A DNA stretch of 64,000 nt, from the NCBI GenBank assembly GCA_001599355.1, contig BCGQ01000004.1, positions 627,249 through 691,248 on the forward strand. Reading direction: 5' to 3'. Shown one piece after another: positions 1 through 45,562 of this stretch. The translations under genes and the position numbers were made by a program. How positions within the stretch are numbered: position 1 is the first letter of the stretch; each line of letters opens with the position of its first letter. This DNA is from Nakazawaea peltata (Eukaryota; Ascomycota; Pichiomycetes; Alaninales; Pachysolenaceae). The notes under the pieces are model-generated. The model saw only the letters and a list, made by a program, of their open reading frames with translations. It did no database searches and had not been told where the DNA came from.

Positions 1-835
1 CACCTGTGCTGAACAACAAGGTTCTGTAATCACCACCAGGAACAAACTCCATAGCCAAGAACAAACTGTCATTGTTTTGGAACAGATATAATAACTTGGT
101 CAACCAATCACTTCTAGTGTGAGTCAAAATGTCTCTCTCGGTTAAAACATGTTTAGTTTCATCCATCTTTAACAAAAGATTCTTACTCAACACTTTCAAA
201 GCAACAATTTCTCTGGTGTCCTTCTTTCTGGCCAAATAAACCTGACCATAACCACCTTGACCGACCTGAGTGATGATATCGAAATCATTGTTTCTAGGCT
301 TTATTCTTCTCTTACGTAAGAGCGCCCTTTCTCTTCCAGTATAATCTCTCCAATTCATCATGGCTTGATGAGGATCAGACATGGTTGAAAGTGTCAGCTC
401 AACTTTCTGGCAACGCTCCTTTCTGCTAATAATGTAATCGAAATAATCACAATAATAGTCCAAAAAATACATCTGGGCCACAGTCACCAATCTCTTAGTA
501 GCTGGCTTGTTGGCCTTCAAGTAAAAGTCTTTGTTCAATCTGGACAGTCTGGATGGAGAAGAAGGTGGAGAAATGTTCATCTCATCTTGCATAGGAATAT
601 TCTCCTTATTAAGAGCAACTCTCTCCATTGGTCTCATTGGTTGTTGGAAATAAGGATCCAACTGGCTGTTTCTCTTGGAATTTGGTGATGGCTCAAAAGT
701 GAAGCGCTCAGTAAAAGACTTGGATGGAGATGAAGTTGGTGTGAAATTGGTACCAATCTCAAACGTTTCGATCTCTCTACTCAAATTCTCGACATCTTGA
801 GTCGGATTCAGTCTACTAGTTCTAAAGAAGTTCAT
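1..835 (-). CDS. DBF2: Dbf2/Dbf20-type NDR protein kinase, N-terminal part (cut by window edge)
   Basis: The first 278 codons of a Dbf2-type kinase, the Mob1-dependent kinase at the end of the mitotic exit network that acts at spindle poles and the bud neck. A Ser/Pro-rich N-terminus (about 1-115) is followed by the basic Mob-binding region (about 130-180, with WRDYTGRERALLRKRR), then the start of the kinase domain: glycine loop GQGGYG near residue 191, the ALKV lysine, and AMEFVPGGDYRTLL close to the edge. The activation loop and C-terminal hydrophobic motif lie outside the window. The start is the ATG at 833-835. The in-frame CTG at 83-85 sits where Dbf2 has alanine in LLYAFQ. Its promoter, shared with the divergent reductase gene, carries an Mcm1/forkhead composite. 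The family call is firm; DBF2 versus a paralogue cannot be separated. Confidence 0.9.
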   Translation of the reverse strand, partial: MNFFRTSRLNPTQDVENLSREIETFEIGTNFTPTSSPSKSFTERFTFEPSPNSKRNSQLDPYFQQPMRPMERVALNKENIPMQDEMNISPPSSPSRLSRLNKDFYLKANKPATKRLVTVAQMYFLDYYCDYFDYIISRKERCQKVELTLSTMSDPHQAMMNWRDYTGRERALLRKRRIKPRNNDFDIITQVGQGGYGQVYLARKKDTREIVALKVLSKNLLLKMDETKHVLTERDILTHTRSDWLTKLLYLFQNNDSLFLAMEFVPGGDYRTLLFSTG

Positions 836-953
836 CTTAACTCTTGTCTTCCTCACTTAAAACTAATTCAATTCATATTATGAAATTTTTAAAACTGCCT
901 TTTTCTCCCTCTTTTTGTTCCCTCTTCCCGTCTCTTCTCTCGCGGCTTTGATG

Positions 954-980
954 TGTTTACATATTTCCCAATTAAGGAAC
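954..980 (-). promoter_or_regulatory. Composite Mcm1 + forkhead (SFF) element
   Basis: Read on the DBF2 strand, an Mcm1-type palindrome (TTCCTTAATTGGGAAA, 964-979) is followed after 3 nt by GTAAACA (954-960). Mcm1 box followed closely by GTAAACA is the arrangement of the S. cerevisiae CLB2-cluster promoters such as SWI5. The element lies 119-145 bp upstream of the DBF2 ATG. Confidence 0.65.
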
Positions 981-1001
981 AGAGCTTTGGGGAAGTAATG
1001 A

Positions 1002-1017
1002 TTTCCTAATTGGGACT
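1002..1017. promoter_or_regulatory. Mcm1-like box
   Basis: TTTCCTAATTGGGACT. The core CCTAATTGGG (1005-1014) fits CCYWWWNNRG; the right flank departs from GGNAA. Confidence 0.45.
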
Positions 1018-1089
1018 AATTGTGCTTCACATGCACGATCAGATCTAAAGAGTGCGCTTAAATAAAAAAAAGTAAGATAGGGGTAATAA

Positions 1090-1105
1090 TTACCGTTTTG
1101 GGTAA
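1090..1105. promoter_or_regulatory. Mcm1-like box
   Basis: TTACCGTTTTGGGTAA fits the palindromic form TTNCC-N6-GGNAA with both outer halves intact. It lies about 85 bp upstream of the reductase ATG. Confidence 0.45.
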
Positions 1106-1186
1106 CAAAAAGCCGCTACTATATAAGAACGAGAGGGAGAGATGTTAAATCAAGTTTAATATTATAGCAACTTTAATTGAGAAGAA

Positions 1187-2038: not shown

Positions 2039-2058
2039 AAAATTATTCTATCTCTAGT

Positions 2059-3868: not shown

Positions 3869-6202
3869 TCAGATAACCTCACTGATGATATCACTGGCCT
3901 CTTTATATGTAGCCAACAACTTCTCACATCTTGTACGTTCTGCACTAATGGCCTCGTCCTCGAATAATAACTCATCAAACAACTCTTCCTTATACAATTT
4001 GGATACCAATCTGTTTTGAATGCTTTCTTTGATGTAGTTGACTAAAAGACACATGACCGATTTTGGAACTTGGTCTTGAATCATTTCTCTGACAATTCCG
4101 AAATATGACACGATCAAACGTCTGATAAGCTCACATTCCAATTCTTCTCTCTCGGTCAATTCAGAGACAGCTTCATCGTGATCTTTCAATTTCAATTTGT
4201 CCATATTTTGGGTAATCTTCATCGAGAGATCTTCTTGAGTCTCTAATAATGGGAATTGACCTTCGGTGTCAAGAGGTTGAGGTTCTTGAGGAGGTTGATC
4301 TTTACCAAAGAAGAAATTCAAGAATGAGTCAGAATCTTTGCCTTCATTCTTCATTGAAGCACTCTTCAAAGCATGGTCACCAATATTTGAACCATTTGAT
4401 AAAGTTTTAGAGTGACGATGTTCTTGATTTTTCTTCTCAGCTGAACCATTCTGGACAACTTCCTCATTCTTACCCTTAGACAGAGTATGTGGCAGTTGCA
4501 ATTGATGTTGAGTCAGCAGTATTTGCAGCAGTTGTTGCAGTTGAGAATGCAGTTGAGACAGCAGTTGTTGCTTAGACTGTTTAGCCTTTTGTCTTTCTTC
4601 AACAACAGTGGCCATAGCAGCAGCTGCACCAACAAAGTTAGGGTGATTAGTATTGATGTAAGCCTTATGGATCTCAATAAGACTCTCAACGTATTTAGAG
4701 GTAGGACCTAATCTTTCCCTCAACAATTCAGACACCACCTCGATCAATCTTGTTTGTAATTTAGGGTATCTATCTAATTCAACGGAACCAGAGTTATGAC
4801 AAATTTTCATCAACTCCTCATAAACCAATTCTACACATCTCTTCGATGGACCTTCAAGTAATTGAATTTGGGGCTTTACCAATAAATCGAAAGCCAGTTC
4901 AGGGACGAAAAGTGATGGTCTTGGACCTGTGGAGTTTCTAATAGCAGTTCTGATATCATTGATTGCCAAATTGGAAGTAGGATTAATGGTGAGCAATGAT
5001 TGTCCAAAGACCTCATTGTAAATATAATAGATTCTTGCACCACCGCATAATTCTTTGGTTGAAATGTCAATGGCATTACCTTCAATTGAGTTGACAAAGT
5101 TATTAGCAAACTTGGTCATCAATTGCAAGATCAAAATACCTCTATTTTCCAAGGCAATAGAACCGACATCACCATAACTGGCCAATTCTTGTTCGGTTTG
5201 ACCCATCAAAGTGTTCAATTTGGCTTTAATATCAGGTAACTTCTCCCTAATATGGTGCATCAAAGTTTGATTCAATGTCTTGGCCAAGAATTTAGTACCA
5301 CATTTACTTGAAATACCACGATAAGCTGGGTGATTATGGAAGAATTCTTCCTCAGATCTAAGACTCTCAGATAAACTCTTGTTAACAGCGATATCTTGTT
5401 GAGATCTATTGACAATACCAATGAATCCCAACTTCAATGGGTAGACTTTGCCAGTCAAAATGTCCAATGCATTAGTTCCTTGGTCCATCAAATCAATCTT
5501 GGATAAAATACCAATAGTTCTCTTTCCTTGAGGGTCAACTTGTCTGGCTAACTTCAAAGACTCAGAGTTAACTAAGTCAACATTAGCAGGACTGACAGCT
5601 AAAATGATAGAGTTAGGTTTGGCAATGTATTCCAAAATCAAATTCTTGATTTGTCTCTCAATATCAGTTGGTTGGTCTCCAATTGGAATCTTGGTCAAAC
5701 CAGGTAAATCCACCATAGTCAAATTCAAAACATGAGGAGAATAGATCTTCAAATTGATAGGTAATCTACTAATACCTTTGTTCTTACCGGCGATTCTGGC
5801 AGTCTCATTCTCAATCTCCTTTCTGATATCATTGAAATTGTAGAAACGCTTATTAGGAATATGTAAAAATTCACCCCATTCATTTTTACTTGGACCTTTC
5901 AAGTGGTCTTCTAAAGTCAATTCTTCAGCATCCATGCTTCTATCAGCATCGTGATAATCGTGAACCAATGACTCATTGGTCTCATTCAAGTTGATCAACT
6001 GTAAAACCAAAGGTCTTCTAGTCACAATACCAGTACCTCTTGGTAAGAAATCTTTGCCAACGATGTTCTCCAAAACCGACGATTTACCAGCACTTTGAGA
6101 ACCGATGACCGTTAAGATTGGAAGATCCAAATCGGTCAAGTTGGTGTTGGTTACAATGTCTTGTAACTTGTTCACAACCGGGATAAGATCAACTAAAGAC
6201 AT
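3869..6202 (-). CDS. DNM1: Dynamin-related GTPase Dnm1 (mitochondrial and peroxisomal fission)
   Basis: 777-residue dynamin-related protein. Dnm1 assembles on the outer mitochondrial membrane and constricts mitochondria and peroxisomes. G1 is GSQSAGKSS (34-42), the switch threonine is T57 in RGTGIVTRRP, G3 is DLPGLT and G4 is SKID (usually TKLD). The stretch ANVDLVNSESLKLAR and the GTNALDIL block resemble Dnm1 rather than Vps1. Middle domain and GED follow; the last 100 residues are the GED. The variable 'insert B' region (about 530-640) has a tract of nine CTG codons within codons 547-570. With CUG read as alanine this becomes a Gln/Ala-rich linker rather than a leucine-rich one. S. cerevisiae Dnm1 has 757 residues. 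The start is the ATG at 6200-6202. Confidence 0.93.
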   Translation of the reverse strand: MSLVDLIPVVNKLQDIVTNTNLTDLDLPILTVIGSQSAGKSSVLENIVGKDFLPRGTGIVTRRPLVLQLINLNETNESLVHDYHDADRSMDAEELTLEDHLKGPSKNEWGEFLHIPNKRFYNFNDIRKEIENETARIAGKNKGISRLPINLKIYSPHVLNLTMVDLPGLTKIPIGDQPTDIERQIKNLILEYIAKPNSIILAVSPANVDLVNSESLKLARQVDPQGKRTIGILSKIDLMDQGTNALDILTGKVYPLKLGFIGIVNRSQQDIAVNKSLSESLRSEEEFFHNHPAYRGISSKCGTKFLAKTLNQTLMHHIREKLPDIKAKLNTLMGQTEQELASYGDVGSIALENRGILILQLMTKFANNFVNSIEGNAIDISTKELCGGARIYYIYNEVFGQSLLTINPTSNLAINDIRTAIRNSTGPRPSLFVPELAFDLLVKPQIQLLEGPSKRCVELVYEELMKICHNSGSVELDRYPKLQTRLIEVVSELLRERLGPTSKYVESLIEIHKAYINTNHPNFVGAAAAMATVVEERQKAKQSKQQLLSQLHSQLQQLLQILLTQHQLQLPHTLSKGKNEEVVQNGSAEKKNQEHRHSKTLSNGSNIGDHALKSASMKNEGKDSDSFLNFFFGKDQPPQEPQPLDTEGQFPLLETQEDLSMKITQNMDKLKLKDHDEAVSELTEREELECELIRRLIVSYFGIVREMIQDQVPKSVMCLLVNYIKESIQNRLVSKLYKEELFDELLFEDEAISAERTRCEKLLATYKEASDIISEVI
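4493..4573 (-). repeat. CAACTG-rich coding repeat in DNM1
   Basis: On the gene strand CAACTG occurs five times, with further ACTGCTG words, giving nine CTG codons in 24 (codons 547-570) alternating with Gln codons. It looks like a trinucleotide/hexanucleotide expansion within the variable domain. Confidence 0.75.
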
Positions 6203-18595: not shown

Positions 18596-20248
18596 TTACC
18601 AAGTCCAGCTGTCGATGTAGGAAGTAGACTCATTTGAATCCAGTTTCAGGAATAAAGTGTCGAATTTCTCGAACTCCAATGACAAATCTCCTTTGAATCT
18701 CTTAGTCAATTCACTATTAAGTAAATTTGGATAATTCCAGTCGAGGAAATCTTCCAAATTATAGGAGTATTTGTTGAAAGGTTGAGAAAATATCTTTGCT
18801 AAGGAAGCGACATTTGGATGGAAGTGGTTCATCATAGATGCCAATTCCCATAATGAAGATTCCAAAGCATTGGTCTTAAGAGGATCCAGTTCTGTTACTT
18901 CAAATGGATCGGTATACTCTGTGTATGTAGTGGTGTTGTGGATTAAAATCATACATGTTGGATGTCTCTTCAACAAGTTATAGATGAATGGAATGACAAT
19001 GACAATACCAGAAGGAGGCAGGGTAAGCGATAATCTGGAGAGTCTCTTGATAAAAGAGGCGATCAAATTGGCTGGAAGATGAGTCGAGGCCAAAAAGAGG
19101 TCGAGCATTCTGAAGAATCTCGATTTTTGACCTAAATGCAATAACTTGTTGTTTAAAATCAGGTACAAATTCTCGTAAAATTGAGGATATTCCAAATTGT
19201 AATCTTTCATTAAGGCAAATAACCCATTCAAAGCCAAAATTGAGATGGTGATGCTGTCTTGCAGGTCATTGTTGAAACCTAAATCGTATGACTCGGTAAG
19301 GAAGTCCATCAATTTGGTTGGCTCAGCAAAGAATGGAATAATACGTTTATGCAAAATCAACAAGGTCTGCTTGTTTTGAGAATCAAGTAAATTGAAGTTC
19401 AATACTTCAAGTAATGCTTTTTGGAAATTCTGAAGGAAGGTTGATCTTTTGCTGATTTGCTTTGTAGGTTGGGTGTTGGTGTATAAGGAGTCCAATTCCT
19501 CATTGAAATCGGTGTACATGCTGTTCTTTAATACTATCAAGAAATTAGAGTAAAAAATTTGTTGATCTTCGTCATTCTCAGGAAGAATATTCGGGATCTC
19601 ACTGATGAAATGGAATCTTAAATCCCAATATTTCATTAAGAATTGATCAACAAATTCCACCAACAAAAAGTTGTCGATATTAATACCACCCGACAGTTTT
19701 ATTACTTGCAAATCTCCTAAAGTGACCAATTTCTCGATTAATGACCGATATAATGGTAAGCTAAAGAATGGTTCCTTTGGATTTGGAGAAAGCCATTTAC
19801 TCTCCAGTCTAACTAACTTCAATAATATGTGTAAAATGTCAATTTGGAACGATTGGAATAACTCTGAATCGATCTTCGAATCATTAAGGAACTCCAAAAG
19901 CTGATCTGTATAAGTAGTATATTTGGATTTCAACCATTTAGTGATCTTTATAAGAGACTCATCGGTGATTGATTTCTTAAGAACAATAGATCTATTAGAG
20001 ATCAATTTCTCGAAAATTTTGAATAATCCAACACTCAAGGTTCTTAATTTGACAATTTCATCCTCATTTGAACTGTCCAACTTTGAATATATTCCTAAAA
20101 GGATTGCGATGGAGTTGTACTTCAGGGGGGTCAAATCTGATAAATCAGAGAGGAGTTGGTTGATGGACTGTAAGGATGTTTCGTCAACCTTGGACGATTT
20201 GGTTTTCTTTGAGGTAGTACGAGCCTCAGAAGCCTTTCTTTTAACCAT
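18596..20248 (-). CDS. NOC4: Noc4 ribosome biogenesis factor
   Basis: 550-residue CBF/Mak21-family protein matching S. cerevisiae Noc4 (552). With Nop14 it is needed for 40S subunit maturation and export from the nucleolus. The C-terminal CBF domain (about 370-500) has FFRMLDLFLASTHLP, SFIKRLSRLSLT, IVIVIPFIYNLLKRHP and MILIHN. A basic N-terminus MVKRKASEARTTSKKTK is a likely nuclear signal. The codon at 19019-19021 (CTG, residue 410) lies where Noc4 proteins have alanine before PP. A PAC box next to an RRPE-like tract stands about 100-120 bp upstream. The start is the ATG at 20246-20248. Confidence 0.92.
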   Translation of the reverse strand: MVKRKASEARTTSKKTKSSKVDETSLQSINQLLSDLSDLTPLKYNSIAILLGIYSKLDSSNEDEIVKLRTLSVGLFKIFEKLISNRSIVLKKSITDESLIKITKWLKSKYTTYTDQLLEFLNDSKIDSELFQSFQIDILHILLKLVRLESKWLSPNPKEPFFSLPLYRSLIEKLVTLGDLQVIKLSGGINIDNFLLVEFVDQFLMKYWDLRFHFISEIPNILPENDEDQQIFYSNFLIVLKNSMYTDFNEELDSLYTNTQPTKQISKRSTFLQNFQKALLEVLNFNLLDSQNKQTLLILHKRIIPFFAEPTKLMDFLTESYDLGFNNDLQDSITISILALNGLFALMKDYNLEYPQFYENLYLILNNKLLHLGQKSRFFRMLDLFLASTHLPANLIASFIKRLSRLSLTLPPSGIVIVIPFIYNLLKRHPTCMILIHNTTTYTEYTDPFEVTELDPLKTNALESSLWELASMMNHFHPNVASLAKIFSQPFNKYSYNLEDFLDWNYPNLLNSELTKRFKGDLSLEFEKFDTLFLKLDSNESTSYIDSWTW

Positions 20249-23827: not shown

Positions 23828-24413
23828 ATTTAATAAAAGATTGGTTAGGAATCTGGCCATTATGAGTGTTAGTGAAGTGTAGTGTAGTGTAATTAAACGA
23901 TCGAAGTATTTCCTCTACAGGTCGTGTAGGGTAAAAATGAAAAGCTTAAAGCCATGACGATCTGCAGGGGCAGATTTTGTGAAATATTGTGTAGAAGGGG
24001 GAAATTGTGGAAATTTGCCTTCGGAGTGCGCGAATGCCCTAAGTTGTGCCCTTATTGCCCTTCACCTTATTTGCCCTTTCATCCCCTAGGTCAGCCTTAG
24101 GGGCTGAACAAAAGCAGTAGAAAAGTACGTGGGACAGTAGGAGGATATAAATTCTATATATAGAATGTAAAGAAGATAGTGGAGAATATGGTGGAGAATA
24201 TAGTCGAGATGTAGTGGAGTAATGAATTCTCTGCAATACGGAAACCGAACAATTCCAACCCTATTTCTCCACCTTTCGGCTACCTCCGGCCCTTGCCCAT
24301 CCTCTACTCTGCCCATTCCCTGCGCATATCCCGCCTTGCCCTCACTTGCCCTCCCTCTACGAAAATTGCTTCAATTTCTGAACACATTTAACTTTTATTA
24401 CTCCCAACTGATC
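23828..24413. other. Intergenic region TKL1 / PTC1
   Basis: 586 bp with no recognisable gene. It has short GTGTAGT repeats just after TKL1 (23873-23892), several TTGCCCTT words (24030-24080), and an ATG at 24222 in frame with PTC1. Confidence 0.5.
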
Positions 24414-29041: not shown

Positions 29042-29698
29042 ATGGATAGAGCTATACAAACATACTACACGATCAAATCCACCCTGAAAGAGAGATTGAG
29101 TGGACTCGTGCCTTCGATTTATGAGGCCGTATCTCAAGGCTCATACAGAAGCCTCTTAGATCTCGAATCATTCAAAGACACCTTCTCACCTTCACGTATC
29201 TTTGCCCAAATCGTGATACTACAAAGCGTTTATTATCTGACAGCAATGCTGATGTTTGCCTTATTGCTGTCTTTAGCGGGGTATCCGTTCTCGTTTGATT
29301 GGTTATTCTCATGGGAACCAATCACTTTAGAGAATGCGTTGGGTTTAGCCTTAACTTTATGTTGGCTCGCCGACTCTTTGTTTTGCATTGGTTTCATGAC
29401 TGTCATTGTAGGGAGATCGAAATTGGCTTGGGATTTTGCTCTTACGATTCATGCTATCAATTTCATTGTATGTTGGACATATTCTAAAAAGTTCCCTAGA
29501 TCTATTCTTTGGTGGGTATTACAAGGGGTCTCATCTGCTATATTAGTTGGATTGGGTACATGGACTACCCGTTGGAAAGAGTTAAGAGATACATTCTTCG
29601 ATGGGTTGAATGATGCCGAGCTTGGACAATCCACTACCCTGCCTACACTGACTACACTGACTACCGAGTCTATTCCACTTGAGACAGTATCCAAATAA
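29042..29698 (+). CDS. SYS1: Golgi membrane protein Sys1
   Basis: 218-residue Sys1, a polytopic Golgi protein that recruits the Arl3 GTPase and so the Arl1/golgin pathway. About four hydrophobic segments lie between residues 58 and 180. Signature blocks are FSPSRIFAQIVILQSVYYLTA, AGYPFSFDWLFSW, TVIVGRSKLAWDFALTIHAINFI and LGTWTTRWKELRDTFFDGL. The C-terminal tail is short and polar. The N-terminal 40 residues are longer than in S. cerevisiae. The CTG at 29267-29269 (residue 76) sits before SLAG, where the yeast protein has alanine. Its 3' end faces CYR1, with only about 39 bp between the stops. Confidence 0.92.
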   Translation: MDRAIQTYYTIKSTLKERLSGLVPSIYEAVSQGSYRSLLDLESFKDTFSPSRIFAQIVILQSVYYLTAMLMFALLLSLAGYPFSFDWLFSWEPITLENALGLALTLCWLADSLFCIGFMTVIVGRSKLAWDFALTIHAINFIVCWTYSKKFPRSILWWVLQGVSSAILVGLGTWTTRWKELRDTFFDGLNDAELGQSTTLPTLTTLTTESIPLETVSK

Positions 29699-32700: not shown

Positions 32701-35032
32701 CCGAAAGGTAGACCAATCTTTTCAAGCTTGAAATCTCTGCCGGTAAGTAAATCAAATCGTTATCGTCAAGAGTCAACTTTTCCAAGTTGGGAATACTGCT
32801 GAACACACTTCCCGACAAGGTAGTCAATTTGGCCTTGGATAAGTCGATCAAAGTCAATGAAGAGAAGGTGTTTTGAAGGACTAATGAGGTCAAAGGGTTA
32901 CGGTCCATAATGAACGAACGTAAATTTGGCAGGTTGTCCTTCATTTGAGAGATATTATTGGAAGTGGACTTGAGGATCTGTAAATTAGGCAACGAACTGA
33001 TCGACTCAAGACTCGAAATCTGATTGTACCGAATATCTAACATTTTAAGACAGGTCATTTGAGAAAGGAAGTCGGGAGATTCCTTCTTTAATAAGTTGGC
33101 ACTCAAGTTCAATCTCTCTAATTTGGATAAATTGATAATGTTGGGTGAGACAGACGTTAATGAGTTGTATGACATATTCAAGTTGACCAAATTGACTAAT
33201 TCTGTGACTGGTTGTGGAATGGACTTGAAATTATTCGACGATAAATCCAACACTTGAAGGTTCTTCAAGCTCCCAAAACTCTTTGGTACAGTTGTTAATT
33301 GATTACAAGCCAAATTCAAGGTGGTCAAGTTGGCTAAAAGGTCGATATTACGAGGAATCTCGGTGATGAAATTGACTTCCAAATTCAATTCGGTCAATCT
33401 CGACAGTTGGAGAATATTGATAGGGAAATGAGTAGCCCGATTGTCAGCATACACAAACTTGGTCAAATTATTACAAGCCTGAATGAAATCTAATGGAATA
33501 CTGATAGAAGGATTCCTCGAGACATCTATAGATTCGATATCAAAAGTTCTTTGGAATAACACTAAGGGAATAGATTGGATCTGGAAGCCGGCCAAATTCA
33601 CATTCTTATAGTCTCTTGTGATGATATTCTCTTCTTCATCACTCAATTGTCTGAAGAATGAACGTTCTATAGTGAATTTTACTAAGTAACTGATGTCTGT
33701 AGCCGGAGTGAAGTCGCTCGATTGGTACCCTGAGAGTAAAAGTAGACTCATTTGAAGTCTTAATGGGCGGTCGTGCATGTCTAAGATCTTTGAAAGACGT
33801 CCGATTCTGACTGTGAGTTGGTATTCTCCATGACTATTGAAATGATACTTCTTTTTATATCTTCTTAATAATTCCAGAGTGGTCATCTCTGTATCGCAGG
33901 GCATTACTTTAGAGGAGTTGTCTGTGGTGAAGATACGAATGAAGGCCCTTTGGACAGTTGAAGCTGAAGATACAGAGCCTTTTTTAGAAGAAGGTTGAGA
34001 CAGAGGTTTGACTGTTGGAGAGACCGTAGATACGGCAGAAGGTGTAGCTGTAGCTGAGTTTGTTCCATTGGTCTCCGAGATCGCCAGCAGATGAGTCGTT
34101 GGGCTTATTGGTTCAACAACTTTGTTAATATAATGTTGGTCGATACTGTTGCCTCTTGATTTTGAAGATTTACGACCTCCAAATGACATCTGAAGAGTAG
34201 ACGAGTTAGAAGACGATGTACTGTTCATACGTTCTTTATCGAGATCGTCATTTTTGACATTCCATGATTCGGGAGCTACCCAATTAGAAGACACACTGGG
34301 GTTATGTTCACGGAGACCAACACTTGCGGGGACTCCATTACTCGAAGAACCACTTGCTGCACTGATTGAGTTGTGGTTATTTTGACGTCCCAATTCTTGT
34401 AAATTGACCGAGGAAACCAACTGACTCAAGTCGGAGAAATCGGTTAAATCGATATTTGGGATGAGGGACAGAGCCGTTGACGGTTCGGTTGGTTTCGAAT
34501 TTGGTGACGATCTCTCAGCGCTCGCCGTGCTCTTATTGTCATGAGAATTATTATTGAACATCTCTTCTGACAATTCAGGTGGGAACTTTGTAGCTAGAGG
34601 AGAGCTTGTACTTGTGGCTCTGGATGGAGACCTGAAAGGTGTGTGTCTCGAAGAGGTTGAAAAATGTCTACCAGCATGTTCATTGGATGTGTCAGATGAG
34701 ATCGAAGTACCTACTCTTTCTGACAGAGTGGAAGTATTGGAATCTCTTCTTAAGTTGGTGCTTGAACCTATCAATAATTTGCCGAATAAACTGGAGGATT
34801 TCTTGGCTGGCTTCTTTGTCTTACGGGATGTGACTTTGATTGGCAGCTTTAATGGCGGGATAGTTTCTTCACTCCCCTTCAGAGTGGCAGCTGATGGCCG
34901 TGAATGGAACCCTTTGTAGGCCGACGAGAGAGGGTTCATTGATCTCAGATGAGACTCATGATCGGTGTTCTCGTCCTCGGTACTATGGTGGTGGTCGATT
35001 GAGGACCTCTTTTCACCATTAGTATTGGACAT
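29738..35032 (-). CDS. CYR1: Adenylate cyclase Cyr1
   Basis: 1764-residue fungal adenylate cyclase, the Ras-activated source of cAMP for PKA. Domain order is typical: Ser-rich N-terminus (1-360); Ras-association domain (about 365-460, FIRIFTTDNSSKVMPC); more than 20 leucine-rich repeats (about 490-1070); PP2C-like domain (about 1090-1360, DGKNGDDQHG, YTANIGDSMAML); class III cyclase domain (about 1395-1580, VFTDIKSSTLLWD, GGYEVKTEGDAF, VRMGAHWG); and a C-terminal helical region that in yeast binds Srv2/CAP. S. cerevisiae Cyr1 has 2026 residues. No membrane segment is visible. The promoter has a perfect Mcm1 palindrome and a 12-bp AATTCCGGAATT palindrome next to the ATG. Confidence 0.96.
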   Translation of the reverse strand: MSNTNGEKRSSIDHHHSTEDENTDHESHLRSMNPLSSAYKGFHSRPSAATLKGSEETIPPLKLPIKVTSRKTKKPAKKSSSLFGKLLIGSSTNLRRDSNTSTLSERVGTSISSDTSNEHAGRHFSTSSRHTPFRSPSRATSTSSPLATKFPPELSEEMFNNNSHDNKSTASAERSSPNSKPTEPSTALSLIPNIDLTDFSDLSQLVSSVNLQELGRQNNHNSISAASGSSSNGVPASVGLREHNPSVSSNWVAPESWNVKNDDLDKERMNSTSSSNSSTLQMSFGGRKSSKSRGNSIDQHYINKVVEPISPTTHLLAISETNGTNSATATPSAVSTVSPTVKPLSQPSSKKGSVSSASTVQRAFIRIFTTDNSSKVMPCDTEMTTLELLRRYKKKYHFNSHGEYQLTVRIGRLSKILDMHDRPLRLQMSLLLLSGYQSSDFTPATDISYLVKFTIERSFFRQLSDEEENIITRDYKNVNLAGFQIQSIPLVLFQRTFDIESIDVSRNPSISIPLDFIQACNNLTKFVYADNRATHFPINILQLSRLTELNLEVNFITEIPRNIDLLANLTTLNLACNQLTTVPKSFGSLKNLQVLDLSSNNFKSIPQPVTELVNLVNLNMSYNSLTSVSPNIINLSKLERLNLSANLLKKESPDFLSQMTCLKMLDIRYNQISSLESISSLPNLQILKSTSNNISQMKDNLPNLRSFIMDRNPLTSLVLQNTFSSLTLIDLSKAKLTTLSGSVFSSIPNLEKLTLDDNDLIYLPAEISSLKRLVYLSAVHNKLQDLPQGFGSLTSLQYLDLHLNNLHTLTEDIWHLSSLAVLNISSNLLVEFPRPPAEFFLAKNATVNVDYEGQGDLVRNDSVGSISPLNTRRPTILKTQYQFLSDSLLFLSLADNRLDDQNIQVLSLLHRLKSLNLSYNDLIELPSGSLRRMHNLADLYLSGNKLTTLPAEDFEGLQTLSTLHINGNKLHSLPSELSKLVHLNSLDVGSNQLKYNISNWPYDWNWHWNTDLKYLNFSGNKRLEIKPTHNRDSKFRDLDSFLVLKDLKMLGLTDVTITTQNLPDQTLDTRVRTTSSLFANIGYGISDSLGTNDSISIRDVVLEKFGGNDEVLIGIFDGKNGDDQHGHKISKIVQETFGIIFQEELKQNNCSVNDALRRAFLNLNRDINSLIIKNDTSSFASVPEAHRTSTSYELTPRDGLSGCCATIIYIKDKVIYTANIGDSMAMLTRSNGSYQLLTTEHSPYSEEEYKRIRDSGGYVTNDGKLDGVVDVSRAIGFCDFLPHIHSGPDITVLELSPSDQMIAIGTHEIWKYVPYHVAVDVIRKDKDDPQVAAEKLRDYAISYGASDKVAAIIISLNNEQGKMWKRSTENDEALLKVRKDRSSLPEDSTLRRLEDEIEPPVGHVAMVFTDIKSSTLLWDNHPVAMRSAIRTHNTIMRRQLRIVGGYEVKTEGDAFIVSFPTTISALLWCFTVQEQLLQADWPKEILESNQCCEVRDENGNVVFKGLSVRMGAHWGAPVCERDIITKRMDYFGPMVNRTSRISSIADGGQLFLSSDFMREFNEILACHNLAKEKPIEEAYGTKYGPMMNKLESEMNELEQIGWLVHEIGEKKLKGLETPELVTVMFTKSLETRFKFFEQDLLGERTAASLATVSNNTDLVWKLRTLSLRLEEILSYLSEGISISKEVPDEKFVNSSDQISKFSNLGFLSFFDHVVTRIEALTDLLYVRKELQITGVMSSIEVMGMLTSALKELEQLKKLHGSAAE

Positions 35033-35040
35033 TTTGGATC

Positions 35041-36943: not shown

Positions 36944-39430
36944 ATGGACACCACGATCAGACCAGAAGAGAACACTGACGCTGTTTTCAGTGACAGGGTC
37001 AGAAGATTCCAAGAGTTCTTGGATTTGACCGACAAAACCGACTACAAAGAGCAGATTAGAAGCTTATTGATCAAGAACCAGAGAAGATTGGTTGTTTCTG
37101 TTGATGAGATTAGAGATTTCGATAAAGAGTTATGGCAAGGATTGTTGAGTATGCCAACCGAATTTTTGCCAGCTGCCGAGAGAGCTTTAAGAGATACCGT
37201 TATGATTGTTTACGACCCATATGAATTCCCTAATCTGGAGGTTGATAATGATACTGATTTCTATCTTTCGTTTAGAGGATCATTTGGTGATCACCAATTG
37301 ACTCCAAGAAGTATTAATTCCTCATTCCTTTCCAAAATGGTCAGTATTGAAGGTATTGTTACTAAAGCTTCTTTGATTAGACCAAAGATTATCAAGTCTG
37401 TCCACTATTGTGACGAGACCGGTAGATTCCATCAAAGAGAGTACAGAGACCAAACCACCTCTTTCAATCCTATCACCACAAATGCAGTATACCCAACTGA
37501 GGATCCAGAAGGTAATAAATTGGTTACCGAGTACGGACTTTCCAAGTACAGAGATCATCAAACCGTGTCGATTCAAGAATTGCCAGAAACTGCTCCTGCT
37601 GGTCAATTGCCTAGATCTGTCGACATTGTTGTCGATGATGACTTGGCTGATAAGGTCAAGCCTGGAGACAGAGTTCAAGTTATCGGTGTCTACAGAAGTT
37701 TAGGTAATGGTACTAACTCTTCAGCCTTCAGAAGAGTCATCTTGACCAATTCTATCTATATGTTGAAAGAGGTCAAAGAAACCAAGGCTATTTCCGATCA
37801 AACTTTGAGAACGATCAACATCTTGGCCAAGAAGAAGAACATCTTTGAGATTCTTTCTGAATCCTTGGCTCCTTCCATTTGGGGTTATGAGTATATCAAG
37901 AAAGCTGTCTTGTTAATGTTATTAGGTGGTGTCGAAAAGATCTTACCTAATGGGTCTCATTTAAGAGGTGATATTAATATCTTGATGGTGGGAGATCCTT
38001 CTACTGCTAAGTCTCAAATGTTAAGATTTGTCTTGAATACAGCTCAATTGCTGATTGCTACAACTGGTAAAGGTTCTTCCGGTGTAGGTTTGACAGCTGC
38101 CGTCACCACAGACAGAGAAACCGGTGAACGTAGATTGGAAGCCGGTGCCATGGTCCTCGCCGATAGAGGTGTAGTTTGTATCGATGAATTTGACAAGATG
38201 AGTGATGCCGATAGAGTCGCTATCCACGAAGTGATGGAACAACAAACTATCACCATCTCCAAAGCTGGTATCCATACATCTTTGAATGCTAGATGTTCGG
38301 TTATTGCTGCTGCTAACCCCGTATATGGACAATACGATGTCTTTAAGACTCCTCAACAAAACATCGCCTTACCTGATTCTTTGTTATCGAGATTTGATGT
38401 CTTATTCATTGTTACCGATGATGTTTCCGACGAGAAGGACAGAAGGATCAGTGAACATGTCTTGCAAATGCACCGTTACATCCCACAAGGGTACGAAGAA
38501 GGTGAACCAATCAGAGAGAAATCCGGTGCTACTTTAAGTGCTGGTGATTCTCATAATGCCGATGAACTCGACGAGGAGAATGAAGAGCGTGTCTTCTTGA
38601 AAGGTTCTGAACAATCCAGAGATGCTCTCGTATCGATCAACTTCCTCAAGAAATATATCCAATATCTGAAACAAAGAGTCAAGCCAGTCTTGTCTGCCAA
38701 GGCCTCGAACAAGGTGGTCAAATTCTACACCGAGTTGAGAAACGAGGCCGACTCGGTCAACACCAATAAGACATCTCCTATCACTGCGAGAACTTTGGAG
38801 ACCATTATTCGTCTTGCTTCTGCTCATGCTAAATTGAGATTGAGTCCAGTAGTGGAGTCGAAGGATGTCGAAGTGGCCGAGGAGATCTTGAGATACTCGA
38901 TCTTTAAGGAAGTATCGAAGAAACAGAGAAAGAGACAAAAGCTTGCCTCAAAGAAACAAGAACGTAAAGACAGAGGAGACGATGCTCAAGAGCAAGATGC
39001 CGAAAGTGAGAGTGAGATAGAATACAGTGCCGAATCGGAACTCGAAGATGTCGCTGAAGAACCAGAATACGTCCCAAGAGGAACTAAAACTAGAGGACTT
39101 GCGTCCTTAAGAACCGACTCACCAGAACCTGAATTAGAACTGATCACCACCGACTTGGAACAATTACCATTGCAATCACAACAAGCTCAACAACAAGGGG
39201 GAGCTATCTCTCTGCAAAGATTACAACAATTCACTAGAAAGATGTCCGAATTGATTCAATCTGAGGTGTTTGCCGATGAGAATTGTCCAATCGAGAGATT
39301 ATTCCAACAAGTGAACGGTGACTTGAGTGTTGAGAATAAGTTCACTCAAGAAGAGTTTGACCAGCTGTTGGAAATCATGAGCGAGAAAAACCAAGTTTTG
39401 ATTTCCGATGGAAAGGTTTGGAGAGTTTAA
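36944..39430 (+). CDS. MCM3: MCM3, replicative helicase subunit
   Basis: 828-residue Mcm3 subunit of the MCM2-7 helicase. Mcm3-specific text includes PAGQLPRSVDIVVDDDLADKVKPGDRVQV and SLAPSIWGYEYIKKAVLLML. The AAA+ core shows Walker A GDPSTAKS (K356), Walker B with CIDEFDKM, and the arginine finger LLSRFD. A charged Glu/Ser-rich linker (about 640-740) separates the core from the C-terminal winged helix ending DGKVWRV, as in yeast. Two CTG codons (residues 370 and 575) lie where Mcm3 has alanine, the clearest being QYAK(E/Q)R at 38666-38668. The promoter has an MCB and an Mcm1 box, fitting cell-cycle control. Confidence 0.96.
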   Translation: MDTTIRPEENTDAVFSDRVRRFQEFLDLTDKTDYKEQIRSLLIKNQRRLVVSVDEIRDFDKELWQGLLSMPTEFLPAAERALRDTVMIVYDPYEFPNLEVDNDTDFYLSFRGSFGDHQLTPRSINSSFLSKMVSIEGIVTKASLIRPKIIKSVHYCDETGRFHQREYRDQTTSFNPITTNAVYPTEDPEGNKLVTEYGLSKYRDHQTVSIQELPETAPAGQLPRSVDIVVDDDLADKVKPGDRVQVIGVYRSLGNGTNSSAFRRVILTNSIYMLKEVKETKAISDQTLRTINILAKKKNIFEILSESLAPSIWGYEYIKKAVLLMLLGGVEKILPNGSHLRGDINILMVGDPSTAKSQMLRFVLNTAQLLIATTGKGSSGVGLTAAVTTDRETGERRLEAGAMVLADRGVVCIDEFDKMSDADRVAIHEVMEQQTITISKAGIHTSLNARCSVIAAANPVYGQYDVFKTPQQNIALPDSLLSRFDVLFIVTDDVSDEKDRRISEHVLQMHRYIPQGYEEGEPIREKSGATLSAGDSHNADELDEENEERVFLKGSEQSRDALVSINFLKKYIQYLKQRVKPVLSAKASNKVVKFYTELRNEADSVNTNKTSPITARTLETIIRLASAHAKLRLSPVVESKDVEVAEEILRYSIFKEVSKKQRKRQKLASKKQERKDRGDDAQEQDAESESEIEYSAESELEDVAEEPEYVPRGTKTRGLASLRTDSPEPELELITTDLEQLPLQSQQAQQQGGAISLQRLQQFTRKMSELIQSEVFADENCPIERLFQQVNGDLSVENKFTQEEFDQLLEIMSEKNQVLISDGKVWRV

Positions 39431-39915: not shown

Positions 39916-40788
39916 ATGGTCTCACCGTTAGCTAAAACTCTCAAAGTTGCTTTGATCCAACTCCACACTTCCCTGAACAAACTGCTGAACTTGGCCAAAG
40001 TTTCGGCCAAGATCCAAGAAGCTGTCTCGGGTAAAAGTGTCGATGTTGTGGTTCTTCCAGAGTGTTTCAATTCACCTTATGCTGTTGATGCCTTTGGCAA
40101 GTACGCCGAGGCTATTCCAGGTGGCGAAACTACCGACATGTTGAGCCAATTGCTGAAAAAATTGGGTATCTTCATCATTGGAGGTTCGATCCCAGAGCTG
40201 GATGAAGGTAAGGTTTATAACACTTCTGTCTCTTTCAACCCAGCCGGTGAGATTATTGCTAAGCACCGTAAGTTACATCTCTTTGACATTGACATTCCTA
40301 ACAAAATCACTTTCAAGGAAAGTTTGACCTTGACCGGTGGTGACAAGGCCACTTGTTTCAAAATGGATGGTTATGGTTCAGTCGGATTAGGTATTTGTTA
40401 CGATATCAGATTCCCAGAACTTCTGATGATCCTGGCTCGTGAGAAGAGTCTGTTTGCTATGTTCTACCCAGGTGCTTTCAACACCACCACCGGTCCATTG
40501 CATTGGCAATTATTGGCCCGTGCTAGAGCCGTTGACAACCAAGTGTTTGTTGTATTGTGTTCTCCTCTGAGAGATATGTCTAGTGGGTATCATCTGTATG
40601 GTCATTCTTTAATTGTTAGTCCAAATGGTGAAGTACTTGTTGAGGCCGGAGAAGGAGAGGAGATTGTTTATGGAGAATTGGATCCACTGTTGATCGAGTC
40701 CACCAGAGCTGGAATCCCAGTCACTACTCAAAGAAGATTCGATGTATACAGAGATGTCGGTAAAGATGCGACCGTCAAAGATATGTAA
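39916..40788 (+). CDS. NIT3: Nit3 nitrilase-superfamily amidase
   Basis: 290-residue Nit2/Nit3-type amidase; this family hydrolyses deaminated glutathione and alpha-ketoglutaramate-type repair substrates. The Glu-Lys-Cys triad regions are visible: VVLPECFNSPY, KHRKLHLFDIDIP and GICYDIRFPE (Cys161). PGAFNTTTGPLHW and RARAVDNQVFV are also diagnostic. CTG codons at residues 170, 218 and 227 align with alanine in PELAM, SPARD and YHAYGH of other family members. I chose ATG 39916, which gives a normal N-terminus. An in-frame ATG at 39811 would add 35 mostly basic and hydroxylated residues and could make a mitochondrial form, since yeast Nit3 has been found in mitochondria. Confidence 0.93.
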   Translation: MVSPLAKTLKVALIQLHTSLNKLLNLAKVSAKIQEAVSGKSVDVVVLPECFNSPYAVDAFGKYAEAIPGGETTDMLSQLLKKLGIFIIGGSIPELDEGKVYNTSVSFNPAGEIIAKHRKLHLFDIDIPNKITFKESLTLTGGDKATCFKMDGYGSVGLGICYDIRFPELLMILAREKSLFAMFYPGAFNTTTGPLHWQLLARARAVDNQVFVVLCSPLRDMSSGYHLYGHSLIVSPNGEVLVEAGEGEEIVYGELDPLLIESTRAGIPVTTQRRFDVYRDVGKDATVKDM

Positions 40789-40876: not shown

Positions 40877-41839
40877 TTAGTAGAAGATTGGGATGTTGTC
40901 CCAGTCCCATGGGTCATTAAATCTCAAGTGCTTGTCCAACTTAGCAATCTCGGCAAAGTCTTCATCGTCCAAGTCAAAGTCATCAACAACCAAGTTAGAC
41001 AGTAATCTGGCTGGACTGTTGGACTTTGGAATAATGGCCAAACCTCTTTGGTTAGCCCATCTAAGCAAAACTTTAGCAGGGTCAACCTTGTGCTTAGTAG
41101 CAATAGACTTGATGGTGTCGTGCTCGAACAAGTTTGGAGTGTCCAAAGCAGTCTTGTTTTGAAGCTCCAAGAAAGATTGAGGACCGAAAGAAGAGTAAGC
41201 AGTGACGACAATTCCCAATTTTTGCAGGTATTGGATCAATTCTGGTTGTTGCAAGTATGGGTGGTGCTCGATTTGCAAAGAAGATGGGAAAATCTTCAGG
41301 CTCTTGACCAAATCTTGGATCAAAGCAGCAGAGAAGTTGGAAACACCAATGGCCTTAACCTTACCGGCTTCAACCAAACCCTCCATAGCTCTCCAGGTGT
41401 CCAAAATTGGAATGTCTTCGTAGTGGAAGTTGTCACCGTCACCACAGTAGAAAGTTGGTGGATACTTCTCTTCGAATGGGACGAATTTGAAAGAAATTGG
41501 GAAATGGATCAAATACAAGTCCAAGTAGTCCAATTTCAAGTCGGTCAAAGTCTTGTTCAACAGCTTCTTGACGTTGTCTGGGTGGTGGTAGTTGTTCCAC
41601 AACTTGGAGACAATGAACAATTCCTCTCTCTTGACAAGACCCTCGTCAATGGCTCTCTTGAAACCATCACCAACCTCGACTTCGTTACCGTAGTCAGCAG
41701 CACCGTCGAACAAACGGTAACCTTGCTTAATGGCATCGTAAATAGTTTGGGCGGCCTTGTCCTTTGGGATCTTCCACATACCCAAACCGACGGATGGAAT
41801 CTTCATTCCATTGTTCATATCAAAGCTCTTAACAGACAT
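40877..41839 (-). CDS. XYL1: NAD(P)H-dependent xylose reductase
   Basis: 320-residue AKR2B-type xylose (aldose) reductase, first step of xylose use: xylose to xylitol. The catalytic tetrad is D45, Y50, K79 and H112. The cofactor motif [10 protein letters not shown] and the C-terminus [16 protein letters not shown] are typical of xylose reductases from pentose-fermenting yeasts; the S. cerevisiae relative is Gre3. [17 protein letters not shown] and [14 protein letters not shown] are also conserved. A CTG at 41225-41227 (residue 205) lies where other yeast xylose reductases have alanine in (E/K)FAQK. Whether it uses NADH as well as NADPH cannot be read from sequence. A 1.1-kb upstream region with a CGG-rich island follows on its 5' side. 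Confidence 0.95.
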
Positions 41840-42958: not shown

Positions 42959-43187
42959 TTAGTTGACACTGAATCCATATCCTTTCATACAAACTTTGTA
43001 TTGCAGAATAATGTCATCACACTTTCCCGAGTCTTGACCGTTGATTAATAAGCATTGGTCTCTCTCTTGTTTTTGTGGGATACAGACACAACAAGGTTTT
43101 GGCTCTGTAATGAAGTTAGTATATCTGATGTGAACAGAAATTTTCAACGATTTACTTACTTGATTCAGTTTTAGCTGGTTCAGACAT
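42959..43187 (-). CDS. COX17: Cox17 copper chaperone (two exons)
   Basis: 57-residue Cox17, which delivers copper to Sco1 and Cox11 for cytochrome c oxidase assembly in the mitochondrial intermembrane space. Exons are 43160-43187 and 42959-43104, in frame after removal of a 55-nt intron. The joined N-terminus reads MSEPAKTES then KPKPCCVC. The copper-binding CCxC and twin CX9C cysteines are present (RDQCLLINGQDSGKC, YKVCMKGYGF). Length is close to S. cerevisiae Cox17 (69). The intron has GTAAGT, TACTAAC and TTACAG. An unspliced frame from 43210 starts with GTG and would give an unrelated N-terminus. It is divergent from the YPL162C-like gene. Confidence 0.93.
43105..43159 (-). other. COX17 intron, 55 nt
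   Basis: 5' GTAAGT at 43159-43154, branch point TACTAAC at 43121-43115, acceptor TTACAG ending at 43105. Only about ten bases separate branch box and acceptor. Confidence 0.93.
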
Positions 43188-43416
43188 TGTCCTCTAATTT
43201 GATTAATCACTTAAAGGGTTCTGCTTTATGGGTAGATTTTTCTATTTTTTTTGTTTTCAGAGCCCATTCGGCAGAGTCGTGCATCACCAGCTAAATTCCA
43301 AAAACAAATAGCTCATATTGCATCTGGGTTTCATTACACGACCGCAATTTATATATAAACTAGTTACAAGTAGACGTTTGCCATTGGAACTGATAAGACA
43401 ATTAAAAAATATAGAA

Positions 43417-44178
43417 ATGGCTTCCGATTCTTGTGATCTTATGGGCCCGTTAGGGATAGTGATACAAGCCATGCTCGGCCTTCTTGCCCTCTCTTCATTA
43501 ATATACAAAAGATCTAAAGAATATCCAGTACGAAGACCTTGGAAAGTGTGGTTCTACGATGTTTCTAAACAGGTCTTTGGAGCATTTGGACTCCATATTT
43601 TGAATTTGTTGATGAGTATCATTAGTGGACATGATACAAATATATTATTGCGTTTGGCAAGTGATAGCACTGACCCTGGAGATGACCCTGGAGATGACCC
43701 TTGCAACTATTATTTCCTCAATATTTTATTCGATACCACTATTGGAGTGCCTATTTTATACCTTTCATTGTTGATCATCTATAGATGTATTGGAGCAATT
43801 GGAGAGTTCGAAGGTATCCAAAGTGGTGAATATGGATCTCCTCCAAAGTTTATCAATTATTTAAAGCAGCTTGTCATATATATTGTTGGATTGGTCTTGA
43901 TGAAGATCCTCATCTACATCACTTTGATCTTTTGCCCTGTACTTTTAACATGGGCAGATTGGATACTTTCAGTGTTCGATAATGTAGACCCTACAAATGA
44001 TCTTCAGTTGGTGTTTGTGTTGATGATTTTCCCATGCATTATGAACTCTATTCAATATTATTTGGTCGATAATATCATTCAAAGTCCCGAATATAAAAAT
44101 TCTAAATCTAAAGAAGATAAGGGATTATTGGGACAGCCGCAGCCAGAGATACCTGAAGGTGATTATGGATCTATATAG
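43417..44178 (+). CDS. YPL162C-like vacuolar membrane protein (STIMATE/TMEM110 family)
   Basis: 253-residue polytopic membrane protein resembling S. cerevisiae YPL162C (273), a vacuolar membrane protein of the TMEM110/STIMATE family with no settled function in yeast. The N-terminus CDLMGPLGIVIQAMLGLLALSSLIYKR, then PRRPWKVWFYDVSKQVFGAFGLHILNLL, are family blocks. About five hydrophobic segments span residues 10-230. The luminal or loop segment has a DPGD duplication (about 86-94) from a 12-bp repeat. The tail is polar and acidic. I chose ATG 43417; the open frame extends back to 43318 but starts with TTG. The family call is good; the function is unknown. Confidence 0.8.
   Translation: MASDSCDLMGPLGIVIQAMLGLLALSSLIYKRSKEYPVRRPWKVWFYDVSKQVFGAFGLHILNLLMSIISGHDTNILLRLASDSTDPGDDPGDDPCNYYFLNILFDTTIGVPILYLSLLIIYRCIGAIGEFEGIQSGEYGSPPKFINYLKQLVIYIVGLVLMKILIYITLIFCPVLLTWADWILSVFDNVDPTNDLQLVFVLMIFPCIMNSIQYYLVDNIIQSPEYKNSKSKEDKGLLGQPQPEIPEGDYGSI
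43672..43695 (+). repeat. 12-bp coding repeat GACCCTGGAGAT x2
   Basis: Two exact copies followed by a third GACCCT, encoding DPGD DPGD DP in the loop of the YPL162C-like protein. Confidence 0.9.
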
Positions 44179-44578
44179 AAATAATACGATATAGTGATTT
44201 ACATAGTAGTGTTGTGTATAGCTCAGTTTGCTCGACTTCGTTCTGTCTTGGTTGGTTTTGGCTCATTGCCAGCTGCCCTGCCCAGATGCCCTACCTGCCC
44301 ACCACAATTTCATTCCTATCACACATTTTCCTTACTGTGCTCTAAGGTTTCCTAAGATTTTCCTTATTTTTCCCTAACGTTTCCCTAAATTTTCCCTTAA
44401 TTTTCCCTAACGTTTCCTAAGTTCCTTAATTTCCTCACTCTTTAACGTTTCGCACATGGCTCGTTTAATCATCGCTATGAAAAAATAAACCGCTCGCAAT
44501 CAGTTGGTAAATTTAAACGCCATTCGGAAAGTATTCAAAATTAAACGTATTCCACTTCTTACTTTTAGACGAGCTCGA
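44179..44578. promoter_or_regulatory. MEU1 upstream region
   Basis: 400 bp. From 44346 to 44434 TTTCCCTAA-type words recur nine times. Downstream of 44486 the frame is open into MEU1 with a basic, MTS-like reading but no ATG. Confidence 0.5.
44346..44434 (+). repeat. TTTCCCTAA(CG) repeats
   Basis: Nine TTTCC(C)TWA words at 9-12 bp spacing, 145-235 bp upstream of the MEU1 ATG; two share the longer form TTTCCCTAACGTTTCC. Confidence 0.7.
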
Positions 44579-45562
44579 ATGTCTGCCCATAGAGATAGCG
44601 CTGCTGCTGGCATTGAATTGCCACATGAGTTTCACGAGAAAGTCGAATTACTGATCATTGGTGGTACCGGTTTGTACAAGTTGGACAACTTGACCCCAGT
44701 TGCCCGTTTGACTGTTTCTACACCATGGGGATTCCCTTCGCTGCCAATTACCATCTCTAAGACTGCTTCTGGATTCCCTATTGCATTCTTAGCTAGACAT
44801 GGTCTGCATCACGACCTTTTACCTTCTGATGTCCCATCTAGAGCTAATATCGCTGCTTTGAAGAAGATTGGTGTCAAGGCCATTGTCGCTTTCAGTGCCG
44901 TAGGCTCTTTACAACAACATATTCTGCCAAGAGATTTCGTTTTGCCTACTCAAATTATCGACAGAACTAAAGGTATTAGAGACTCTACTTTCTTCGAGAA
45001 AGGATTTGTTGCTCATGCTGGATTTGGTGAACCTTTTGATCTCAAGTTGAACAGCATTATTGCTGAGACTTGTACCAAATTACCTGAGTTCAGTGCACCA
45101 AAAACTCAAAAATTCCACACCAATAAGACTGAAAATGGTGATTTGACCGTTATTTGTATGGAAGGACCTGCTTTCTCCACCAGAGCCGAATCCCGTTTAT
45201 ACCAATCTTGGAATGGATCTGTTATTAACATGAGTGTTATTCCAGAAGCTAAGTTGGCTCGTGAACTGGAAATCCTGTACCAAATGATTTGTATGTCCAC
45301 TGATTACGATGCTTGGCGTGAAGATGAAGAACCTGTCACGGTAGAGACCGTCGTTGGTAACTTGAAGGCCAACAGTGCCAACCTGCACGTTGTTCTGGAG
45401 AAATTAGTCGAGGTTTTGGAACACGAGATCAAGGCTGGTAATGTCGGTAACGATTTGCTGGGATCCATGAAATTCGCCGTAAGTACCTCTCCTGCAGGCG
45501 TCAAGAAAGAATTATTAGAGAAGATGCACTTCCTCTTCCCAGGTTACTGGCCTGTAGAATAA
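44579..45562 (+). CDS. MEU1: 5'-methylthioadenosine phosphorylase Meu1
   Basis: 327-residue MTA phosphorylase of the methionine salvage pathway; it splits methylthioadenosine into adenine and methylthioribose-1-phosphate. Family blocks: LLIIGGTGLYKL, PSRANIAALKKIGVKAIVAFSAVGSL, DRTKGIRDSTFFE, EGPAFSTRAESRLY, VINMSVIPEAKLARE and MSTDYDAW. S. cerevisiae Meu1 has 337 residues. I chose ATG 44579 (MSAHRDSAAAG). The frame is open for about 25 codons upstream without an ATG, beginning TTG. CTG codons at residues 230 and 233 fall in ARE-x-EI-x-YQM, where fungal enzymes have alanine at both positions. Confidence 0.95.
   Translation: MSAHRDSAAAGIELPHEFHEKVELLIIGGTGLYKLDNLTPVARLTVSTPWGFPSLPITISKTASGFPIAFLARHGLHHDLLPSDVPSRANIAALKKIGVKAIVAFSAVGSLQQHILPRDFVLPTQIIDRTKGIRDSTFFEKGFVAHAGFGEPFDLKLNSIIAETCTKLPEFSAPKTQKFHTNKTENGDLTVICMEGPAFSTRAESRLYQSWNGSVINMSVIPEAKLARELEILYQMICMSTDYDAWREDEEPVTVETVVGNLKANSANLHVVLEKLVEVLEHEIKAGNVGNDLLGSMKFAVSTSPAGVKKELLEKMHFLFPGYWPVE

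What the first reader, a model, noticed from the sequence alone, without database searches (positions are those of the whole stretch)
83..45277. CUG codons read as alanine: a CUG-Ala yeast
In-frame CTG codons sit at positions where the families have alanine: DBF2 83-85 (LLYAFQ); NOC4 19019-19021 (TAPP); PTC1 24843-24848 (two codons, KQAARWC), 24996-24998 (CTAAV), 25278-25280 (MLAVTRSLGD); DRS1 26923-26925 (TRELAIQ); SYS1 29267-29269; MCM3 38051-38053 and 38666-38668 (QYAK); NIT3 40423, 40567 (SPARD), 40594 (YHAYGH); xylose reductase 41225-41227 (AQK); MEU1 45266 and 45275 (AREAEIAYQM). Leucine or serine would be odd at most of these. CUG-Ala is known from Pachysolen and relatives (code 26). 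The comparisons are from memory of family sequences.
Basis: partly seen in the sequence, partly recalled or inferred. Interest (0 to 1): 0.95.

Follow-up and report, generated by a model that had tools for sequence, protein, structure and literature searches.

The report
Yeast reading CUG as alanine
This stretch comes from a yeast that appears to read the codon CUG as alanine instead of leucine, a rare but already described change of the nuclear genetic code, and its genome carries a matching alanine-type transfer RNA.

Summary
The finding holds but is already known. With CTG masked as X, 55 of 57 CTG codons in six window proteins fall in alignments with solved homologues; Ala is the best of 20 residues (BLOSUM62 totals A +54.8, S +25.8, L -68.2; best in 9859 of 10000 bootstraps). 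Over 41 Pfam domain rows of 22 proteins, Ala beats Leu by 137.6 bits and Ser by 58.9. Control: CTC read as Ala lowers or leaves unchanged 10 of 10 rows. The 11.63 Mb genome has one detected tRNA with anticodon CAG (C4:81426-81498): short variable loop, G3:U70, A73, which marks alanine tRNAs. None of the 15 class-II Ser/Leu tRNA genes listed has CAG. This matches NCBI table 26, the CUG-Ala code of Pachysolen, Nakazawaea and Peterozyma (PMC5951914). Species not identified; no peptide evidence here.

The parts
83..85 (-). CTG codon in DBF2-like kinase (LLY[CTG]FQ); gene cut by the window edge
   Evidence: in frame; protein kinase domain; column not aligned here
19019..19021 (-). CTG codon in NOC4 (LT[CTG]PP)
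   Evidence: CBF domain 167.1 (Ala), 163.3 (Leu), 166.6 (Ser) bits
   Evidence: PP2C domain 219.8 (Ala), 203.9 (Leu), 213.8 (Ser) bits
26923..26925 (+). CTG codon in PTREL[CTG] of the DEAD-box gene DRS1
   Evidence: DEAD domain 161.3 (Ala), 159.0 (Leu), 159.1 (Ser)
29267..29269 (+). CTG codon in SYS1
   Evidence: SYS1 domain 176.1 (Ala), 174.4 (Leu), 174.2 (Ser)
38051..38053 (+). CTG codon in MCM3 (residue 370); best homologue 3ja8 MCM3 has Ala
38666..38668 (+). CTG codon in MCM3 (residue 575, QY[CTG]K); best homologue 3ja8 MCM3 has Ala
40423..40425 (+). CTG codon in NIT3 (residue 205, PEL[CTG]M); Ala in YLR351C and nitrilase homologue 2, Ser in three others
40567..40569 (+). CTG codon in NIT3 (residue 253, CSP[CTG]R); Ala in the two best homologues, Thr, Glu, Gln in three others
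40594..40596 (+). CTG codon in NIT3 (residue 262, YH[CTG]YGH); Ala in the two best homologues, Ser in three others
41225..41227 (-). CTG codon in aldo-keto (xylose) reductase
   Evidence: domain 181.0 (Ala), 175.2 (Leu), 179.8 (Ser)
45266..45268 (+). CTG codon in MEU1 (residue 230, ARE[CTG]E); Ala in 4 of 4 homologues counted
45275..45277 (+). CTG codon in MEU1 (residue 233); Ala in the best homologue, Cys in three others
57290..57292 (-). CTG codon in M1 aminopeptidase (residue 173); Ala in 3 of 3 homologues counted
57374..57376 (-). CTG codon in M1 aminopeptidase (residue 145); Ala in 3 of 3 homologues counted; next CTG at 57365-57367 (Ala, Ser, Ala)
59207..59209 (-). CTG codon in GFA1 (STK[CTG]YTS); GFAT1 (6r4e) has Ala
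59435..59437 (-). CTG codon in GFA1 (VEL[CTG]SDF); GFAT1 (6r4e) has Ala

Best explanation
The window is nuclear DNA of a budding yeast that uses the CUG-Ala code. CUG is decoded as alanine by a dedicated tRNA with anticodon CAG, encoded by one detected gene (contig C4, 81426-81498, outside the window). Alanyl-tRNA synthetase is expected to charge this tRNA because it carries G3:U70 and A73; that enzyme does not need anticodon bases, so a CAG anticodon can be loaded with alanine. No tRNA-Leu(CAG) was found, so CUG has no detected leucine reader, and CUU, CUC and CUA are presumably read by tRNA-Leu(AAG). Shown here: the codon columns, the tRNA gene and its features, and no CAG anticodon among the Ser/Leu tRNA genes listed. 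Inferred: charging with alanine, incorporation into protein, and the division of labour among the tRNAs.
For: 16 of 16 listed CTG codons in frame. Ala is best of 20 residues over 55 columns; the best-scoring homologue has Ala in 26 of 55, Leu in 4, Ser in 4 (columns read). Pfam: Ala beats Leu in 28 of the 32 rows that differ by more than 0.15 bits (Wilcoxon p = 1.8e-5) and Ser in 25 of 31 (p = 8.8e-5). Control: CTC read as Ala costs 8.6 bits over 10 rows of three proteins, where CTG read as Ala instead of Leu gains 46.1 bits (sums by hand; 15 CTC against 29 CTG codons in those proteins). tRNA(CAG): Rfam tRNA 50.9 bits, variable loop AGGTC, G3:U70, A73, T run downstream. None of 15 class-II Ser/Leu tRNA genes listed has CAG. 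The 13 hits of the strict CAG pattern were all looked at: one tRNA(CAG), one tRNA-Leu(AAG), two tRNA-Lys(CTT), nine without a tRNA. A tRNA-Ala(CAG) reading CUG in Pachysolen, Nakazawaea and Peterozyma is described in PMC5951914 (abstract, section 4, section 5 part 1 and section 11 read) and PMC11415595 (one passage read).
Against: No peptide data. The LRR region of the adenylate cyclase gene scores higher with Leu (LRR_8 144.1 against 137.4 bits; LRR_4 and LRR_1 too). Three of the 55 columns are mainly Leu, 15 are mixed and many are not conserved. tRNA searches were by pattern, so an unusual second gene could be missed; the tRNA family scan scored only 63 of 608 candidates and did not list this tRNA, and the looser pattern was printed only in part. 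The D-arm is closer to tRNA-Val and tRNA-Gln than to tRNA-Ala, and the whole tRNA is as close to tRNA-Val(TAC) as to tRNA-Ala(AGC).
Confidence: 0.96

Rival explanations
1. CUG is read as serine, as in Candida albicans relatives (code 12).
For: Ser is second best of 20 over the 55 columns, and best in 5 of the 30 Pfam rows with a clear winner, M18 and Ras among them.
Against: Ala beats Ser by 58.9 bits over 41 rows and is best in 21 of those 30. The CAG tRNA lacks the long variable arm of tRNA-Ser and has G3:U70 and A73. None of the 7 tRNA-Ser genes listed has CAG.
Confidence: 0.02
2. Standard code: CUG is leucine, and the Ala-like columns are chosen cases.
For: The LRR region of adenylate cyclase prefers Leu. 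Leu is best in 4 of the 30 Pfam rows with a clear winner.
Against: Over 55 CTG columns in six proteins Leu ranks 15th of 20 residues. Leu loses 137.6 bits to Ala over 41 rows. None of the 8 tRNA-Leu genes listed has CAG.
Confidence: 0.01
3. CUG is read mainly as alanine with some leucine by mischarging of the same tRNA.
For: The tRNA(CAG) has G37 and A73; I recall, from no call, that yeast LeuRS uses A35, G37 and A73. G37 is held responsible for 3% leucine mischarging of the C. albicans tRNA-Ser(CAG) (PMC5951914, section 5).
Against: The body is class I, unlike tRNA-Leu. Nothing here measures charging.
Confidence: 0.08

Closest known systems
CUG-Ala code, NCBI translation table 26 (Pachysolen tannophilus, Nakazawaea, Peterozyma)
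   Same: CUG reads as alanine; a novel tRNA with anticodon CAG of alanine type; no tRNA-Leu(CAG) found
   Different: No difference in kind seen.
CUG-Ser1 and CUG-Ser2 codes (Candida; Saccharomycopsis, Ascoidea)
   Same: Same codon reassigned, also through a new tRNA with anticodon CAG (PMC5951914)
   Different: Amino acid and tRNA class differ: here a class-I tRNA with G3:U70, and columns favour Ala over Ser

Membership tests
CUG-Ala nuclear code (table 26) | CTG codons lie at positions where homologues have alanine | tested here: met
   Ala best of 20 over 55 of 57 CTG codons in six proteins; Pfam +137.6 bits over Leu, +58.9 over Ser for 41 rows of 22 proteins
CUG-Ala nuclear code (table 26) | tRNA with anticodon CAG bearing alanine identity (G3:U70) | tested here: met
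   C4:81426-81498
CUG-Ala nuclear code (table 26) | no tRNA-Leu(CAG) or tRNA-Ser(CAG) | tested here: inconclusive
   none of 15 class-II genes listed by pattern has CAG and no other tRNA(CAG) among the 13 hits, but neither search is exhaustive
CUG-Ala nuclear code (table 26) | alanine found in peptides at CUG positions | not testable with these tools
   no proteome data
CUG-Ala nuclear code (table 26) | species lies in the Pachysolen/Nakazawaea/Peterozyma clade | not tested
CUG-Ser codes (table 12 and Ser2 clade) | class-II tRNA-Ser with anticodon CAG | tested here: not met
   the detected tRNA(CAG) is class I; none of 7 tRNA-Ser genes listed has CAG

The most novel reading that the evidence does not exclude
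The CUG tRNA of this yeast is of mixed make-up: acceptor stem and variable loop are closest to tRNA-Ala, while the D-arm is closest to tRNA-Val and tRNA-Gln. It keeps G37 and A73, so a small share of CUG codons might be leucylated, which would leave a statistical proteome in a CUG-Ala yeast.
Probability: 0.08. Interest if true: 0.55.

Novelty: already known. Interest (0 to 1): 0.25.

Why it matters
Reassignment of a sense codon in a nuclear genome is very rare, and CUG in budding yeasts is the main example (PMC5951914, introduction). Rediscovery from raw DNA shows that the change can be read from codon columns and tRNA genes. For anyone using this genome, its proteins should be translated with table 26: about 1.3% of codons in the listed ORFs are CTG (229 of 17,201).

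Tried and rejected
Leucine and serine readings were scored on the same proteins and lost overall. The first tRNA pattern gave 135 matches against 105 for its backward control, and the stricter one 13 against 16, so the counts themselves prove nothing. The candidate was picked by eye because its variable region matched tRNA-Ala, appeared again, and was then borne out by ARAGORN and Rfam. Only part of the list was printed; four of its places were fetched (L049-L052), three of them without a tRNA. The DNA search with tRNA-Leu(TAA) found only 4 genes and missed tRNA-Leu(AAG), so it was not used to argue absence. Pfam rows dropped before the count of 41 were overlapping, weak or listed under one code only. 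Among them LRR_4 and LRR_1 favour Leu, LRR_14, Arf and AAA_22 favour Ser, Roc and Transketolase_C favour Ala. In the CTC control the dropped row Mg_chelatase falls by 2.0 bits. Nine proteins were scanned only under code 26 and are not in the comparison. Near-identical PDB chains of one protein were counted once. Naming the species was tried through papers only (and 63 listings, passages) and left open. PMC4986446 was seen in passages only and decided nothing.
Full report
Setting. Its genes look like ordinary yeast genes: dynamin, RTT109-like HAT, proteasome subunit, eIF3d, NOC4, transketolase, PP2C, DRS1, SYS1, adenylate cyclase, a Ras-family GTPase, MCM3, NIT3, aldo-keto reductase, MEU1, inositol-phosphate synthase, M1 aminopeptidase, GFA1 and M18 aminopeptidase. 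ARAGORN finds no tRNA in the window.

Observation.

Column test. Six proteins (M1 aminopeptidase, NIT3, MEU1, GFA1, M18 aminopeptidase, MCM3) were translated with CTG as X, so that the query favoured no residue, and aligned to solved structures. I chose these six because I expected solved relatives. Of their 57 CTG codons, 55 fall in an alignment. Over the 55 columns the BLOSUM62 total is +54.8 for Ala, +25.8 for Ser, -8.2 for Thr and -68.2 for Leu (15th of 20). Ala is the best residue in 9859 of 10,000 bootstraps over columns, Ser in 140 and Lys in 1. The best-scoring homologue has Ala in 26 of 55, Leu in 4 and Ser in 4. By majority, 17 columns are Ala, 5 Ser, 3 Leu and 15 mixed, and 15 are spread over other residues. 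Clear single cases are STK[CTG]YTS in GFA1, the two CTG codons before FPCLDEP in the aminopeptidase, and ARE[CTG]E in MEU1.

Profile test. Twenty-two proteins were scanned against Pfam with CTG as Ala (code 26), Leu (code 1) and Ser (code 12). Over 41 domain rows Ala exceeds Leu by 137.6 bits (28 up, 4 down of 32 that differ by more than 0.15 bits) and Ser by 58.9 bits (25 up, 6 down of 31). Of 30 rows with a clear winner, Ala wins 21, Ser 5 and Leu 4. The main contrary row is LRR_8 in adenylate cyclase, 6.7 bits in favour of Leu. As a control, reading CTC as Ala (with CTG already Ala) lowered or left unchanged each of 10 rows in three proteins, by 8.6 bits in all. In the same 10 rows reading CTG as Ala instead of Leu gained 46.1 bits. 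Those proteins hold 15 CTC and 29 CTG codons.

The tRNA. A pattern search for anticodon-loop CAG followed by a T-arm led to C4:81426-81498. ARAGORN folds it as a cloverleaf with anticodon CAG, and Rfam scores it 50.9 bits against a cut-off of 29. A search with its own sequence finds one copy. Its acceptor pairs are G:C, G:C, G:U, C:G, U:A, U:U, A:U with A73; tRNA-Ala(AGC) of the same genome has G3:U70, C4:G69, the same U6:U67 mismatch and A73, while tRNA-Val(TAC) has U3:G70 and U73. The variable loop AGGTC is identical to that of tRNA-Ala. The T-arm matches tRNA-Ala(AGC) at 14 of 17, but tRNA-Glu equally well. The D-arm is closer to tRNA-Val (17 of 20) and tRNA-Gln (16 of 19) than to tRNA-Ala (13 of 19), and the anticodon arm is closest to tRNA-Glu (12 of 17). 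Over the whole length it is 70% identical to tRNA-Val(TAC) and 69% to tRNA-Ala(AGC). Its descent is therefore not settled by this set, which lacks several tRNA families. A run of T follows the gene (L049), as expected for a polymerase III terminator.

Other readers of CUG. A pattern for the A-box and T-arm of class-II tRNAs gives 15 genes and none in the backward control. Read by eye, they are Leu(CAA) x5, Leu(TAA) x2, Leu(AAG) x1, Ser(TGA) x1, Ser(AGA) x3, Ser(GCT) x2 and Ser(CGA) x1. None has CAG. The 13 hits of the stricter CAG pattern hold no second tRNA(CAG). These are pattern searches, not an exhaustive scan, and the family scan scored only 63 of 608 candidates and did not list the tRNA(CAG) at all.

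Comparison with what is known. PMC5951914 (abstract, section 4, section 5 part 1 and section 11 read; further passages) reports CUG read as alanine in a clade of Pachysolen, Nakazawaea and Peterozyma, with a novel tRNA(CAG) formed from tRNA-Ala; it determined the codes of 18 yeast species by LC-MS/MS. It also states that AlaRS and SerRS do not require particular anticodon bases. PMC11415595 (one passage read) repeats the clade and its tRNA-Ala(CAG). The window fits this code in the features that I could test. I therefore call it already known, with the species unnamed and the protein-level proof outstanding.

Noticed in passing
window 4481-4564 (-): A glutamine-rich tract in the dynamin gene holds ten CTG codons within 84 bases (QQ[CTG][CTG]SQ[CTG]HSQ...), which looks like repeat expansion using the reassigned codon.
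   Followed up: no
window 29738-35032 (-): In the adenylate cyclase gene the leucine-rich-repeat profile prefers Leu (LRR_8 144.1 against 137.4 bits); the CTG at 32930 (DN[CTG]PNLRSF) sits in an LRR-like stretch.
   Followed up: partly
G000:C1:2857671-2858094: Two tRNA-Leu(CAA) genes of the same sequence lie 352 bases apart next to a tRNA-Met gene; both lack an intron, while another Leu(CAA) copy (C7:154354) appears to have one.
   Followed up: partly
G000:C2:142794-143060 (L045, L059): Two tRNA-Lys(CTT) genes with introns of 14 and 12 bases lie close together, with a third tRNA-like match cut by the end of the stretch.
   Followed up: partly
window 22784-23860 (-): A 358-codon open frame runs antisense to the transketolase gene and has no CTG codon; probably a by-product of codon bias.
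   Followed up: no
window ORFs: CTG (229) is far commoner than CTA (36) in the listed ORFs and makes up about a fifth of alanine codons under table 26 (229 of 1105), so the reassigned codon is in regular use.
   Followed up: partly
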